Shown piece by piece: positions 1 to 45,472 of a stretch of DNA of 64,000 bases (its first letter is position 1; each line of letters begins with the position of its first letter). Made by a program: the position numbers and the translations under genes. The notes under the pieces were generated by a model that did not search any database, was not told the DNA's origin, and was given only the letters and a program-made list of their open reading frames with translations. The stretch spans positions 1 through 64,000 of the forward strand of contig PNAG01000006.1 of assembly GCA_003169845.1 (NCBI GenBank), written 5' to 3'. This DNA comes from Candidatus Dormiibacterota bacterium. Its GTDB lineage: Bacteria; Chloroflexota; Dormibacteria; Dormibacterales; Dormibacteraceae.

Positions 1-622
1 CCATCCGCTTCTCTCGACAACGACCGTCGTGCTTGTCTGACCGGCGCGCCAGTGGCTCCAGTGCGGTCCGAATCGAAGCCCCGCCGACGGGGTCGAAAAC
101 ACTATTGATCCAGACCGCCCCGTCCTCGCCGGTTGAGATCCAGAGCTTGCGGTTCTCCACCAGGTCCGCTTGCTCGCCCTCATAGCCTTTGCGGTCGGCC
201 GAGTGACGGTAGTGGTTGCAGAGGTAATAGAACTTGCCTGGCGAATTCTCCCGCGCCTTGGCCAGCAACACAGACTCCTCGAATTTGGCCCCGACGGCAT
301 TGGCCGTCCGGACCATGGCCTTCAGGTGAGCAAAGCCGATCTCGCCGTTGGAAACCGCCTGGGTGCTCTCCGGAACCCGCTCCAGCTTCTGGCCGACTGC
401 AATGAGGTCAGCGGCAACAGTGCTGGTCTGGTGGCAGTTGAAGCGAATCCAGTCGATCGGGCTCGCGTAGCCCCATCTGTCGTACTCCTTGGTGGCGGCA
501 AAGCGAGCCGCCACGCGGGAAGCGCGGATGAGCAACAGATCGACCTGGTGGAGCAGCTGCTCGAGCTCTTCGCCGGCCTCCGCACCGGGCGTTCGAGTCT
601 GCAGGTCTTGCGTCGCAAGCAT
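1..622 (-). CDS. DUF222 / HNH endonuclease (13E12-like) family protein, 3' part beyond left edge
   Basis: Reading the minus strand from ATG at 622 gives an uninterrupted frame of about 207 codons that runs off the left edge. It carries the DUF222 pattern seen also in the intact copy at 13037-14233: a helical N-terminus (residues 1-60, with WGYASPIDWIRF), a repeated KLERVPESTQAVSNGEIGF-type helix, NHYRHSADRKGY, and near the edge VFDPVGGASIRTALEPLARR. The C-terminal HNH motif would lie outside the window. No function is firmly established for the family; members resemble mycobacterial 13E12 repeat proteins with a C-terminal HNH nuclease fold. The sequence is diverged from the copy at 13037 but has the same promoter layout. 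The start is supported by a -10-like TAGTGT 6 nt upstream, suggesting a leaderless message. Confidence 0.85.
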   Translation of the reverse strand, partial: MLATQDLQTRTPGAEAGEELEQLLHQVDLLLIRASRVAARFAATKEYDRWGYASPIDWIRFNCHQTSTVAADLIAVGQKLERVPESTQAVSNGEIGFAHLKAMVRTANAVGAKFEESVLLAKARENSPGKFYYLCNHYRHSADRKGYEGEQADLVENRKLWISTGEDGAVWINSVFDPVGGASIRTALEPLARRSDKHDGRCREKRM

Positions 623-635
623 GAAGACACACTAC

Positions 636-681
636 CAAACAGACGTTCGATTGTTATAGATTTGATCGTAAAAAAGGTCAA
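636..681 (-). promoter_or_regulatory. Promoter and LexA-like palindrome of the truncated DUF222/HNH gene
   Basis: On the minus strand CGAACGTCTGTTTG (636-649) is followed by TAGTGT and, 6 nt later, the ATG at 622. Just upstream lies an alternative strong core promoter, TTGACC (676-681), 17 nt, TATAAC (653-658). The CGAAC-N4-GTTTG palindrome recurs at the other two DUF222/HNH loci (12827-12840 and 45359-45372) and resembles the Gram-positive LexA box. The regulator is inferred. The rest of the 623-799 gap is C-rich and holds nothing else recognised. Confidence 0.6.
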
Positions 682-799
682 AAACGAACCAATTTCTCAG
701 GCCAATCACCCCGCCTCCGAGCCCTCCCCGACACCCCCTTCGCAGTCCCTATCCGAGCGTCGCCGCTCTCCCAAACGCGCCCCTACCGCCCCCTACCGC

Positions 800-12733: not shown

Positions 12734-12805
12734 GACGACGGCTGTGAAGGGGGTGTTGGGGGTGGGTCTGGAGGATGGACGGACGGGCTGGTGGGCGGCG
12801 AGTTT

Positions 12806-12854
12806 TGTAAATTAGGGCTTGACATACGAACATTCGTTTGGTAAGCTATTTCTC
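12806..12854 (+). promoter_or_regulatory. Leaderless promoter with LexA-like palindrome of the intact DUF222/HNH unit
   Basis: TTGACA (12819-12824), a 17-nt spacer and TAAGCT (12842-12847) form a near-consensus core promoter. The spacer holds CGAACATTCGTTTG (12827-12840). The start codon GTG at 12855 lies 7 nt after the -10, where transcription should begin. The 29 nt at 12806-12834 are identical to the reverse complement of 45365-45393 in front of the decayed copy. The rest of the 12734-12805 gap shows no feature. Confidence 0.75.
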
Positions 12855-13040
12855 GTGTCGCGGAAAGGGGAAACCGCCCTCGCAGAGTTGCAGGCGGCGG
12901 TTCGTGAATTCTTGCAACGTGAGGAACGCGCCGTCGATCTGCCGGCGCTCTGGGCTGTCATCCAGACCCTCAAGCATGATGTGGCAACTCGTTCTCCCGC
13001 ATCAAATGAGAGTGTTGGGGATGCCGAGGTGGAGGAGTGA
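12855..13040 (+). CDS. Small ORF preceding and overlapping the HNH gene
   Basis: 61 residues from GTG at 12855 (an upstream TTG at 12819 would lie inside the -35 box and is unlikely). Mostly helical and charged: SRKGETALAELQAAVREFL, then QREERAVDLPALWAVIQT. Its TGA overlaps the GTG of the HNH gene as GTGA, so translation is probably coupled. A shortened relative (reading LEDVEATVRAFLSRK then stop) can be read at the same place in the decayed copy at 45345, so the ORF is part of the repeated unit. No known family was recognised; it could be a partner or regulator of the nuclease-like protein, or just a translational leader. Confidence 0.65.
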   Translation: MSRKGETALAELQAAVREFLQREERAVDLPALWAVIQTLKHDVATRSPASNESVGDAEVEE

Positions 13041-14233
13041 TTACGTCGGCGCTGTCAACACTGGAAGGAGCGGTTAGCGATTTCAATCACCGCGACCTAG
13101 ATCCGAGCGACGACGACCCGAAGCGCATGCGTGCCGTGATAGATGCGCTGGAGCTTGAATTCGCTTCCATGGTGCGGCGAACCCAGCAGCGAGGTGAGCA
13201 CCTGGTCTGCGGCAACATCACCGCGGCCTCCTGGATCGCTCGCACTTGCGGCATGTCTGTCACCTCTGCCGCCGACCGGCTCTGCGTCGGCGAGCAGCTG
13301 GAATCCTTGACCAAGGTCGCTACGGCTCTGGCCTCAGGTGAGGTCGGTTACCAGTCGGTCACTGCGCTCTGCCACCTGCGCGAACAACTTGGCGAGAAGG
13401 GACGACTCTTCGACGAAGAGGAGATGCTCGGGTTTGCTCGCGAGTACTCGGTGTCGGAGCTCCGCAAGATCTGCAACTACGCCCGCCACGTCGCCGACCC
13501 GGACGGCTTCTTCAACGACGCCGAGGAGTGCTTCAGGCGCCGGCGGCTGCACATCAGCCAGATGTCAGATGGCCTCTATGCGGTCGATGGCGTACTTGAC
13601 CCGGTGGCCGGTGCTGCTTTCAAGACGGCGGTAGATGTGCTGGCCAAGCCCAAAGGACCGGAAGACGAGCGAACCCCGAAGCAGCGCAGAGCGGACGCCG
13701 TAGGTGAGCTGGCGCTGCACGCGATGGAGCAAGGCACCTTGCCTCGGCGCCACAGCGTCAAGCCGCACATCAACCTGACCATGACGCTGGAAGGCCTCAA
13801 AGGCGAGCTTGGCGTGCCGCCGGCCGACCTCGAGCTCTCGCTTCCCATCTCGACTCGCACCGCCGAGCGCATCGCCTGCGACTGCACGATGTCGCGGGTG
13901 CTGATGGCGGACTCGATGGTGATCGACGTGGGGCGGGCGACGCGAACCGTGTCGGCGCCCACCATGCGGGCGCTGCGAGTGAGAGATAAGGGCTGCCGGT
14001 TCCCCGGCTGCGATCGCCAGGTGAACTGGTCGAGTCCTCATCACATCATTTATTGGTCAAGAGGCGGGCCGGGGAAACTGCCCAACCTGGTGCTGCTCTG
14101 CTACTTCCATCACCGGCTCGTGCACGAAGGTGGGTGGCAGGTGATCAAGTCGGGTCGCGAGTTCCGCTTCCTTCCACCTGATCGAGTGGTGATGCGGCGG
14201 GCGCGCGGGCCGGGTATGCGCTGGGCGGCTTAG
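13037..14233 (+). CDS. DUF222 / HNH endonuclease (13E12-like) family protein, intact copy
   Basis: 398 residues. The N-terminal ~250 residues are DUF222 (GNITAASWIARTCGMSVTSA, SGEVGYQSVTALCHLREQL, YARHVADPDGFF, VDGVLDPVAGAAFKTAVDVL). The C-terminus is a zinc-type HNH nuclease domain from about residue 318: CRFPGCDRQVNWSSPHHI, then GGPGKLPNLVLLCYFHH and LVHEGGW, with the cysteines and histidines all present, so it could be active. Start GTG at 13037 with GGAGG just upstream, overlapping the small ORF. It ends 10 nt from the convergent fixC-like gene. Family members are often multicopy in high-GC Gram-positive genomes; their function is unsettled. Confidence 0.9.
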   Translation: MITSALSTLEGAVSDFNHRDLDPSDDDPKRMRAVIDALELEFASMVRRTQQRGEHLVCGNITAASWIARTCGMSVTSAADRLCVGEQLESLTKVATALASGEVGYQSVTALCHLREQLGEKGRLFDEEEMLGFAREYSVSELRKICNYARHVADPDGFFNDAEECFRRRRLHISQMSDGLYAVDGVLDPVAGAAFKTAVDVLAKPKGPEDERTPKQRRADAVGELALHAMEQGTLPRRHSVKPHINLTMTLEGLKGELGVPPADLELSLPISTRTAERIACDCTMSRVLMADSMVIDVGRATRTVSAPTMRALRVRDKGCRFPGCDRQVNWSSPHHIIYWSRGGPGKLPNLVLLCYFHHRLVHEGGWQVIKSGREFRFLPPDRVVMRRARGPGMRWAA

Positions 14234-44113: not shown

Positions 44114-44905
44114 ATGCAAACGATCATCAACGGCGCGCGGATCAATTACGAGCGCTCGGGAGCCGGCTTTCCAGTGATCTTCCTGCACGCTGGTATCGCC
44201 GATTCGCGCATGTGGGAGCCACAGGTCCCTGCATTCGCGAAGCAATTCGATGTCATCCGGCCGGACCTACGCGGCTTTGGAAAGTCCGAGCTGCCGCCTG
44301 ATCCATGGTCGCCCGTCGAGGACCTGCTGGCGCTCATCGATGACCTCGGGTTGAAGCCCGTGCACCTGATCGGCTGCTCGATGGGTGGCGCGCTCGCCAT
44401 CGATTTCGCCCTCGAGCATCCGGAAAGGCTTTCCAAGCTGGTGTTGGTCGGCTCGGCCATCCATGGATTCTCTGGCCGGCCAGAGCACGCTCACCTGTAC
44501 GCCGAGTCCGCTGCGGCGCGCAAGTCGGGCGACCTAGACGCCCTCAAGGAAGCTCTGATGTACCTGACGCTCGATGGACCGGCACGTCCGCGAGGTTACG
44601 TCGCGGAACCGCTTAGAACTCTCTTCTTGGACATGAACAAGCGACAGCTAAGCGCTGACTTTGAAAAGGCTCCGCCCAGATGGTCCGAGCCGCCCGCTGC
44701 AACGCGCCTCAATGAGATCACCGCGCCCACGCTGGTGATGATCGGGGACAGGGATTTGCCGAATGTGTTGGAGGTAGCGGATCTCCTCGTGGAATCGATT
44801 CCGGATGCACGCAAGGCTGTCATCAACGACGCAGCGCATCTGCCGAACCTGGAGCACCCGGAAGAATTCAACCGCCTCGTACTCGACTTTCTGCAGGCGG
44901 ACTAA
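44114..44905 (+). CDS. Alpha/beta hydrolase, tandem copy 2
   Basis: 263 residues, aligned over its whole length with copy 1: NGARINYERSGAGFPVIFLH, HAGIADSRMWEPQVPAFAKQ, IGCSMGGALAIDFALEHPER, MIGDRDLPNVLEVAD and DAAHLPNLEHPEEFNRLVLD. The catalytic triad is complete. It begins 4 nt after copy 1 and ends the long plus-strand run from 35787. Its stop touches the end of the decayed HNH copy (44902). Third codon positions are somewhat less GC-rich than in copy 1. Substrate unknown. Confidence 0.87.
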   Translation: MQTIINGARINYERSGAGFPVIFLHAGIADSRMWEPQVPAFAKQFDVIRPDLRGFGKSELPPDPWSPVEDLLALIDDLGLKPVHLIGCSMGGALAIDFALEHPERLSKLVLVGSAIHGFSGRPEHAHLYAESAAARKSGDLDALKEALMYLTLDGPARPRGYVAEPLRTLFLDMNKRQLSADFEKAPPRWSEPPAATRLNEITAPTLVMIGDRDLPNVLEVADLLVESIPDARKAVINDAAHLPNLEHPEEFNRLVLDFLQAD

Positions 44906-45345
44906 GCTGCCCAGCGAAGGCCCGGTCCGCGCGCCCGTCTCATCACAACCCGTCCCGGCGGAAGGAACCTGAACTCACGACCGGCTTTGATCACCTGCCA
45001 TCCACCCTCATGCACCAGCCGATGGTGAAAAAAATGAGAAGCACGAGGTTGGGCAGGTTGTTCGGTCCACCTCGCGCCCAATGAATGATGTGATGCGGAC
45101 TCGACCAGCAGAGGTGACCGACATGCCGCAGGTGCGAGCGATCCAGGAAGCAGCTGTGATGTTGCCGGAGACGAGATGCTCGCCAGACTTCTGGGCGTCT
45201 CGAGCCTCTGAGCTGAAGTCGCCGTCCAGTGCATCGATTACGCCGCGGTACCGGACCAGATCAACGTGCCGCGTTACTTGCGGGACAGGAAGGCGCGAAC
45301 CGTCGCCTCGACATCCTCCAGGCAGATCTCCCCTTCCCCCAACAC
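44902..45345 (-). pseudogene. Decayed DUF222/HNH copy with a large internal deletion and frameshifts
   Basis: Read on the minus strand: GTG at 45345 opens a short ORF (LGEGEICLEDVEATVRAFLS) related to the small leader ORF of the intact copy. DUF222 N-terminal sequence follows (GNITAASWIARTCGMSVTSA, identical over 20 residues to the intact copy). Then about 760 nt are missing and the text resumes directly in the HNH motif (SPHHIIHWARGGPNNLPNLV). The junction shifts the frame, and a run of seven T (minus strand, near 45026-45036) causes another shift before HHRLVHEGGWQVIKAGREF. The last 40 residues match the intact copy almost perfectly, so decay is recent. Confidence 0.88.
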
Positions 45346-45351
45346 GAGATA

Positions 45352-45393
45352 AGCCTACCAAACTAATGTTCGTATGTCAAGCCCTAATTTACA
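45352..45393 (-). promoter_or_regulatory. Promoter with LexA-like palindrome of the decayed DUF222/HNH copy
   Basis: Minus strand: TTGACA (45375-45380), 17-nt spacer, TAGGCT (45352-45357), then 6 nt to GTG 45345. CGAACATTAGTTTG lies at 45359-45372. The 29 nt at 45365-45393 are identical to 12806-12834 in front of the intact copy, showing that promoter and gene were copied together. Confidence 0.7.
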
Positions 45394-45472
45394 CGAATCG
45401 CGCCACTCCGAACGTGCTTCTAGCCTCCAACCCCACCCCCGGCACCCCTTCCCAGTCCTTCCCGCCGTACGC

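What the first reader, a model, noticed from the sequence alone, without database searches (positions are those of the whole stretch)
636..649. LexA-like palindrome with the same position in all three DUF222/HNH promoters
CGAACGTCTGTTTG (636-649), CGAACATTCGTTTG (12827-12840) and CGAACATTAGTTTG (45359-45372) sit directly upstream of a TANNNT -10 and a start codon 6-7 nt further on. The coding regions of copies 1 and 2 have diverged, yet this site is kept. It is close to the Gram-positive/mycobacterial SOS box CGAAC-N4-GTTCG. From memory, several 13E12-family genes of M. tuberculosis are LexA-regulated. DNA-damage control of a repeated HNH nuclease-like family would fit a mobile or genome-plastic element.
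Basis: partly seen in the sequence, partly recalled or inferred. Interest (0 to 1): 0.75.

Follow-up and report, generated by a model that had tools for sequence, protein, structure and literature searches.

The report
SOS-box promoters of HNH gene repeats
A repeated family of nuclease-like genes in a soil bacterium (phylum Dormibacterota) carries the same DNA-damage control site as its repair genes, and relatives of the family in other phyla carry whichever DNA-damage control site is native to their host, which suggests that damage-triggered expression is a selected property of these genes.

Summary
Observation confirmed and extended. The three 14-mers lie where stated, each just before a TANNNT -10 and a leaderless start. 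Every DUF222 gene found in this genome (12 PF02720 hits, five promoter families, plus a deleted remnant in the window) carries the box at the promoter. The same box precedes recA, lexA, uvrB and an imuA-like gene, so it is the genome's own SOS box. The LexA reading is supported by sequence, but the host is Candidatus Dormibacterota, not an actinobacterium.

Beyond the finding, DUF222/HNH promoters elsewhere carry the local damage operator. Gram-positive LexA box: 51/52 in the window's family, 23/31 in Actinomycetota. RecA-NDp (PafBC-type): 10/31 in Actinomycetota. TACTG-N10-CAGTA: 8/12 in Gammaproteobacteria. Shuffles give 0-2 expected per group. A second Dormibacterota family mostly uses an ACAGCTGTC operator shared with radA, recJ and a gene upstream of recA.

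Copy 2 (12739-14233) is insertion-polymorphic: a same-genus genome has the empty site.

LexA control of 13E12 genes is already known in M. tuberculosis; the breadth and operator switching were not found in the papers I could search. LexA binding, induction and nuclease function are untested.

The parts
636..649 (-). SOS (LexA) box of copy 1, CGAACGTCTGTTTG
629..634 (-). -10 element of copy 1 (TAGTGT), followed by gtcttc and ATG
   Evidence: sequence
1..622 (-). DUF222 gene copy 1, 5' part, leaderless ATG at 622-620; cut by the end of the contig at base 1
731..748 (-). G-rich 5' end motif of copy 1 (GGACTGCGAAGGGGGTGT)
12739..12756 (+). G-rich 5' end motif of copy 2; 5' boundary of the repeated and inserted unit
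12819..12824 (+). -35 TTGACA of copy 2
   Evidence: sequence
12827..12840 (+). SOS (LexA) box of copy 2, CGAACATTCGTTTG, inside the 17-bp spacer
12842..12847 (+). -10 TAAGCT of copy 2; GTG start 7 nt further on
   Evidence: sequence
12855..13040 (+). 61-codon leaderless leader ORF resembling the N-terminus of sibling copies (no Pfam match); its stop overlaps the next start (GTGA)
13037..14233 (+). DUF222 (PF02720) + HNH (PF01844) gene copy 2, 398 aa, intact HNH residues
12739..14233 (+). whole inserted unit of copy 2: absent from the same site in G001, internally deleted in G002
45359..45372 (-). SOS (LexA) box of copy 3, CGAACATTAGTTTG, between TTGACA (45380-45375) and TAGGCT (45357-45352)
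44902..45345 (-). copy 3 remnant: 5' part fused to the 3' HNH end by an internal deletion
45441..45458 (-). G-rich 5' end motif of copy 3 (GGACTGGGAAGGGGTGCC)

Best explanation
The 14-mer is a LexA operator (SOS box) placed on the core promoter of a repeated DUF222-HNH nuclease gene. Intact LexA should block RNA polymerase; when RecA on single-stranded DNA makes LexA cleave itself, all copies should be transcribed as leaderless mRNAs together with recA, lexA, uvrB and the other SOS genes. Damage control is a selected property of the gene family and not a leftover of recent duplication, because relatives carry whichever damage operator their host uses. The gene with its promoter forms a 1.5-kb unit that inserts, recombines and decays, so SOS-timed nuclease expression probably serves its spread or conversion. 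Shown here by sequence: operator, promoter layout, shared box at recA/lexA, conserved HNH residues, insertion polymorphism. Inferred: LexA binding, induction, nuclease activity. Speculative: the purpose.
For: All 12 PF02720 hits in the genome carry the box at the promoter; it is also at recA, lexA, uvrB, an imuA-like gene and DEAD helicases. Half-sites and -10 invariant in 11 copies while flanks are 41-46% identical. Dormibacterota family f1: 51/52 DUF222 promoters with the box, 2.15 expected; inside the gene 1/65, 400-700 bp upstream 1/48. In some f1 genes the box has moved onto the start codon (CGAAC-ATG-N-GTTCG) and still overlaps the core promoter. Other phyla carry other damage operators at the same place: Actinomycetota 23/31 LexA and 10/31 RecA-NDp, Gammaproteobacteria 8/12 TACTG-N10-CAGTA and 0/12 Gram-positive box. 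HNH residues invariant in 54 proteins; dN/dS 0.10-0.37 between paralogues, 0.10-0.17 between the closer pairs. Empty site in a same-genus genome.
Against: No binding or expression data. Paralogues share ancestry, so copies within one promoter family are not independent. The right half-site is GTTTG, not GTTCG, in most own copies (lexA itself also has GTTTG). No inverted ends or target duplication seen at the one empty site read, so the route of insertion is unknown. A damage-repair role for the host is not excluded.
Confidence: 0.85

Rival explanations
1. The box is only hitch-hiking: copies are recent duplicates of one promoter and LexA control has no importance for the gene.
For: Copies within promoter families A, B and C are clearly homologous over 1.3 kb including promoter and gene. 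Decayed copies (remnant c5c, frameshifted c23 and c14a) still carry the box.
Against: Five promoter families with unrelated flanks keep the box. The box sits 5' of the -10 in some lineages and over the start codon in others. The operator type changes at least 10 times on the protein tree; one f3 gene nested among f1 genes with LexA boxes carries the f3 operator instead (FastTree, long branches present).
Confidence: 0.07
2. The site is a LexA operator, but the gene is a host SOS repair nuclease (for instance part of a substitute mismatch-repair pathway) and not a selfish or mobile unit.
For: Proposed for M. tuberculosis 13E12 genes (PMC4181829). Purifying selection between paralogues. The f3 operator is shared with radA, recJ and the yajQ gene upstream of recA.
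Against: Copy number varies from 0 to 12 between related genomes; pseudogenes and 3' fragments are common; insertion is polymorphic within a genus. A core repair enzyme should be stable and single-copy.
Confidence: 0.3
3. The genes are damage-triggered defence or self-killing nucleases.
For: HNH nucleases occur in defence systems; the nearest solved HNH domains by sequence are IscB, Cas8f-HNH and McrA.
Against: No PADLOC model matches; copies are scattered singly through the genome.
Confidence: 0.15
4. In Dormibacterota family f3 the ACAGCTGTC site is the operator of an unknown palindrome-binding regulator and not a PafBC/RecA-NDp promoter.
For: It is palindromic (GACA-N-RCAGCTGTC), whereas the RecA-NDp motif is not (PMC6789036); the DUF222 -10 starts with C (CANNNT); a full TTGTCRGTG-type match is rare in f3 (1/46).
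Against: TGTCR and the distance to the -10 equal the published tTGTCRgtg-8nt-TAnnnT (PMC5656591), and its other targets are DNA repair genes with TANNNT.
Confidence: 0.45

Closest known systems
LexA-regulated 13E12 (DUF222/HNH) genes and REP13E12 repeats of Mycobacterium tuberculosis
   Same: Multi-copy DUF222+HNH genes with a CGAAC-N4-GTTCG SOS box; described as having characteristics of mobile elements (PMC5005354, PMC4181829); gene-conversion hotspots (PMC13061034)
   Different: Different phylum (Dormibacterota); copies are only about 65-87% alike in DNA; right half-site mostly GTTTG; a G-rich 5' end motif; polymorphic insertion shown by an empty site; operator type varies between lineages
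Gram-positive / mycobacterial SOS box (TCGAAC-N4-GTTCGA)
   Same: Half-site, spacing, and position at recA and lexA of the same genome
   Different: One changed base (GTTTG) in the right half of most DUF222 copies and of lexA
RecA-NDp / PafBC promoter (tTGTCRgtg-8nt-TAnnnT)
   Same: Found before some actinobacterial DUF222 genes (10/31); TGTCR and the distance to the -10 are shared by the f3 operator
   Different: The f3 operator is a palindrome, and its DUF222 -10 begins with C
Gammaproteobacterial LexA box (TACTGT-N8-ACAGTA)
   Same: Found at gammaproteobacterial DUF222 promoters (8/12); recA of the Halioglobus genome has a similar site
   Different: Unrelated sequence to the window's box; same gene family
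HNH homing endonucleases and IscB-type HNH domains
   Same: HNH domain with invariant C and H residues (profile match to IscB HNH, E 2.3e-5)
   Different: The DUF222 part has no convincing structural match in the PDB (best E 0.04); no intron, intein or guide RNA was noticed

Membership tests
LexA (SOS) operator, Gram-positive type | CGAAC-N4-GTTCG palindrome | tested here: met
   CGAAC-N4-GTTYG in all copies, reversed asymmetry in two; one base off perfect in most
LexA (SOS) operator, Gram-positive type | same box at recA and lexA of the same genome | tested here: met
   recA CGAACACTTGTTCG, lexA CGAACAAAGGTTTG
LexA (SOS) operator, Gram-positive type | overlaps the core promoter | tested here: met
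   immediately 5' of TANNNT, with a TTGACA-like -35 upstream in most of families A and B
LexA (SOS) operator, Gram-positive type | LexA binds; gene induced by DNA damage | not testable with these tools
   needs gel shift and RNA-seq
13E12 / DUF222-HNH family | PF02720 domain followed by an HNH domain | tested here: met
   PF02720 E 7.7e-31; PF01844 at its cut-off, 21.4 bits
13E12 / DUF222-HNH family | conserved HNH metal and catalytic residues | tested here: met
   C320, C325, H335, H336, C355, H359 invariant in 54 proteins; model pLDDT 92
13E12 / DUF222-HNH family | nuclease activity | not testable with these tools
   none
REP13E12-type dispersed repeat | dispersed multi-copy unit with defined ends | tested here: met
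   12 hits plus remnants and contig ends; ends at the G-rich motif and the stop codon
REP13E12-type dispersed repeat | close sequence identity between copies, as the gene-conversion hotspots of M. tuberculosis suggest | tested here: not met
   copies are about 65-87% identical in DNA
REP13E12-type dispersed repeat | carries a prophage attachment site | not tested
   attachment site not looked for
insertion sequence / transposon | terminal inverted repeats and target duplication | tested here: inconclusive
   none seen by eye at the empty site of copy 2; only one site examined
RecA-NDp / PafBC promoter (f3 operator) | TGTCR, 11 nt, TANNNT, before DNA repair genes | tested here: inconclusive
   about 65 hits against 2 in the reversed control in 8 genomes, at radA, recJ, yajQ; but palindromic, and CANNNT at DUF222 genes

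The most novel reading that the evidence does not exclude
DUF222-HNH is a family of damage-induced, gene-sized mobile cassettes found in several phyla whose promoter is repeatedly rewired to whichever damage regulator the host uses (several unrelated LexA boxes, PafBC-type promoters), so that the nuclease acts when broken DNA and recombination are available for its own spread.
Probability: 0.4. Interest if true: 0.8.

Novelty: new variant of a known kind. Interest (0 to 1): 0.6.

Why it matters
13E12/DUF222 genes are repeated in many Actinomycetota, including M. tuberculosis, where the repeats are still said to 'lack defined biological function' (PMC13061034). Finding that they carry the host's own damage operator in several phyla, even when that operator has an entirely different sequence, indicates that damage-timed expression is what selection maintains. 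That narrows the possible functions and makes them testable in culturable organisms such as Halioglobus relatives or M. smegmatis.

Tried and rejected
Solo copies of the G-rich motif as a homing target: every hit in the genome is a DUF222 copy or a contig end. PADLOC defence models: none. Phages and plasmids as carriers: 1 phage and 5 plasmid records only, all distant. Foldseek against PDB and BFVD: no whole-fold match (best E 0.04 and 0.0025), only weak ParB/Noc-like and HNH-domain hits. Gemmatimonadota: GAAC-N7-GAAC at 3/6 DUF222 promoters (0.08 expected), but their recA promoters lack the exact motif, so not claimed as LexA. Rokubacteria: no known operator recognised in 3 loci. The primary papers of Davis 2002 and Smollett 2012 are not held, so their content is cited through later papers. 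The f3 LexA count (12/46) is inflated by background (7/47 intragenic matches); about 9 of those sites are properly placed at promoters by eye.

Full report
WHAT IS THERE. Their number alone is weak evidence (3 against 0.54 expected; 3 of 100 shuffles reach 3), but their position is not chance. In copies 2 and 3 the order is TTGACA, 2 nt, box, G, TANNNT, 6-7 nt, start codon, so the box fills the 17-bp spacer and the mRNA is probably leaderless. Copy 1 has the same box, -10 and start but a poorer -35. Copy 1 runs off the contig, whose first base is the first base of the window. Copy 2 is a full DUF222-HNH gene. Copy 3 is an internally deleted remnant.

GENOME-WIDE TEST. The genome (3.69 Mb, 29 contigs) has 12 PF02720 hits. 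All 12 have the box at the promoter; two have the mirror form CAAAC-N4-GTTCG. Two contig ends (C4, C25) stop at a box, and C23 ends at the G-rich motif found upstream of the boxes, probably because repeats broke the assembly. The promoters fall into five families with unrelated flanks. In eleven copies aligned without gaps on the box the ten half-site bases and the -10 TA/T are invariant, while identity is 0.41 upstream, 0.53 in the N4 and 0.46 downstream.

IT IS THIS GENOME'S SOS BOX. The only lexA has CGAACAAAGGTTTG and recA has CGAACACTTGTTCG. Further boxes precede uvrB, an imuA-like RecA paralogue, two DEAD-box helicases and a cytosine methylase.

THE HOST IS NOT AN ACTINOBACTERIUM. The nearest named relatives are MAGs of Candidatus Dormibacterota (filed also as Chloroflexi CF_n). 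That the window's genome belongs to the phylum follows from its sharing a family with G024, G030 and G035.

OPERATORS IN RELATIVES. In family f1, 51 of 52 DUF222 promoters have the box within one mismatch (2.15 expected from dinucleotide shuffles). Natural controls give 1/65 inside the gene and 1/48 at 400-700 bp upstream. Two layouts occur: box before the -10, or box over the start codon (CGAAC-ATG-N-GTTCG right after the -10). In family f3, lexA also has CGAAC boxes, yet most DUF222 genes (33 loci) carry GACA-N-RCAGCTGTC, 12 nt, CANNNT, 6-7 nt, start, while a minority carry a classic LexA box between TTGACA and the -10. A genome pattern for the f3 operator gives about 65 hits against 2 in the reversed control in 8 genomes. 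Hits other than DUF222 precede radA, recJ, yajQ about 1.1 kb upstream of recA, a DUF1232-like gene and a small conserved protein. TGTCR and the distance to the -10 equal the published RecA-NDp/PafBC motif tTGTCRgtg-8nt-TAnnnT (PMC5656591), but the site is palindromic, unlike RecA-NDp (PMC6789036), so the regulator is left open.

OTHER PHYLA. Among named loci from the genome collection, Actinomycetota DUF222 promoters have the LexA box in 23/31 and RecA-NDp in 10/31 (0.7 and 0.65 expected). Gammaproteobacteria have TACTG-N10-CAGTA in 8/12 (0.06 expected) and the Gram-positive box in 0/12. Gemmatimonadota have GAAC-N7-GAAC in 3/6 (0.08 expected). recA of the same genomes serves as reference: Micropruina and an acidimicrobiian recA have both LexA box and RecA-NDp, Halioglobus recA has CTGAGTATATATACAG, but Gemmatimonadota recA lacks the exact GAAC motif. 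Names are those of the record titles, mostly MAGs, and one record filed as Gammaproteobacteria (L317) was grouped with Gemmatimonadota because its promoter and recA resemble theirs. On a quick protein tree of 156 rows the operator type needs at least 10 changes. One f3 gene (L069) nests with f1 genes that have LexA boxes yet carries the f3 operator (FastTree, long branches, so only indicative).

THE UNIT AND ITS MOBILITY. Copies share an upstream end at a G-rich motif, GGACTGNGAAGGGGGTGT, 70-130 bp before the box, and a downstream end at the stop codon. The motif is found with 4 or fewer mismatches before 29/62 f1 DUF222 genes and in 0/62 control stretches, and no solo copies occur in the genome. 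The genes flanking copy 2 lie about 60 bp apart in same-genus genome G001 with no DUF222 between them. G008, G003 and G005 also lack it. G002 holds the 5' motif fused to the 3' HNH end, an internally deleted remnant. No target duplication is evident. Copy 2 has a 61-codon leader ORF resembling sibling N-termini, overlapping the main ORF by GTGA, so it is probably a recombinant.

THE PROTEIN. DUF222 (E 7.7e-31) plus HNH; C320, C325, H335, H336, C355, H359 are invariant in 54 proteins from several phyla. dN/dS between intact paralogues is 0.10-0.37. The AlphaFold model is confident (pLDDT 92, pTM 0.81). By sequence profile the HNH resembles IscB (E 2.3e-5). No whole-fold match was found.

MECHANISM. 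Most likely LexA occupies the core promoter and SOS induction releases all copies at once. The use of unrelated damage operators in unrelated hosts makes selection for damage-timed expression likely. Whether the nuclease serves its own spread, repair or killing is not settled; I lean to spread by recombination because of insertion polymorphism, decay and variable copy number.

KNOWN AND NEW. LexA control of 13E12 genes and their repeat nature are known in M. tuberculosis. I found no paper in the held library describing it outside Actinomycetota, or a change of operator type; the library lacks most subscription journals, including the primary LexA papers.

Noticed in passing
window 12855-13040: 61-codon leaderless ORF in front of copy 2, resembling the N-terminus of sibling copies and overlapping the main start (GTGA); looks like a recombinant or tandem N-terminus.
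   Followed up: partly
L161, L169, L172 (Dormibacterota f3): LexA box about 345 bp before DUF222 with an intervening small ORF whose stop appears to overlap the DUF222 start (ATGA): possible two-gene SOS operon.
   Followed up: no
window 12739-12756, 731-748, 45441-45458: G-rich motif GGACTGNGAAGGGGGTGT marks the 5' end of the repeated unit across f1 genera; role unknown.
   Followed up: partly
L303, L315, L338 (Rokubacteria): A shared CGCGATCGTCGC-like stretch lies just before DUF222 genes; possibly a lineage-specific operator.
   Followed up: no
L294, L307, L327, L317 (Gemmatimonadota-like): CCGAACANNTNCCGAAC-like repeat directly before a -10 of DUF222 genes; some recA promoters there have GAAC-N7-GAAA on the other strand.
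   Followed up: partly
L007 (G000:C9:31391-31404): CGAACATTAGTTTG with no DUF222 gene behind it; chance site or the last trace of a lost copy.
   Followed up: no
L019 (G000:C20:14726-14739): Perfect SOS box between TTGACA and a -10 upstream of a C-5 cytosine methylase gene.
   Followed up: partly
f3 genomes, e.g. L235, L240, L246, L260: GACA-N-RCAGCTGTC operator at yajQ (upstream of recA), radA, recJ and an uncharacterised MGNVIPW protein: a probable damage regulon of Dormibacterota distinct from LexA.
   Followed up: partly
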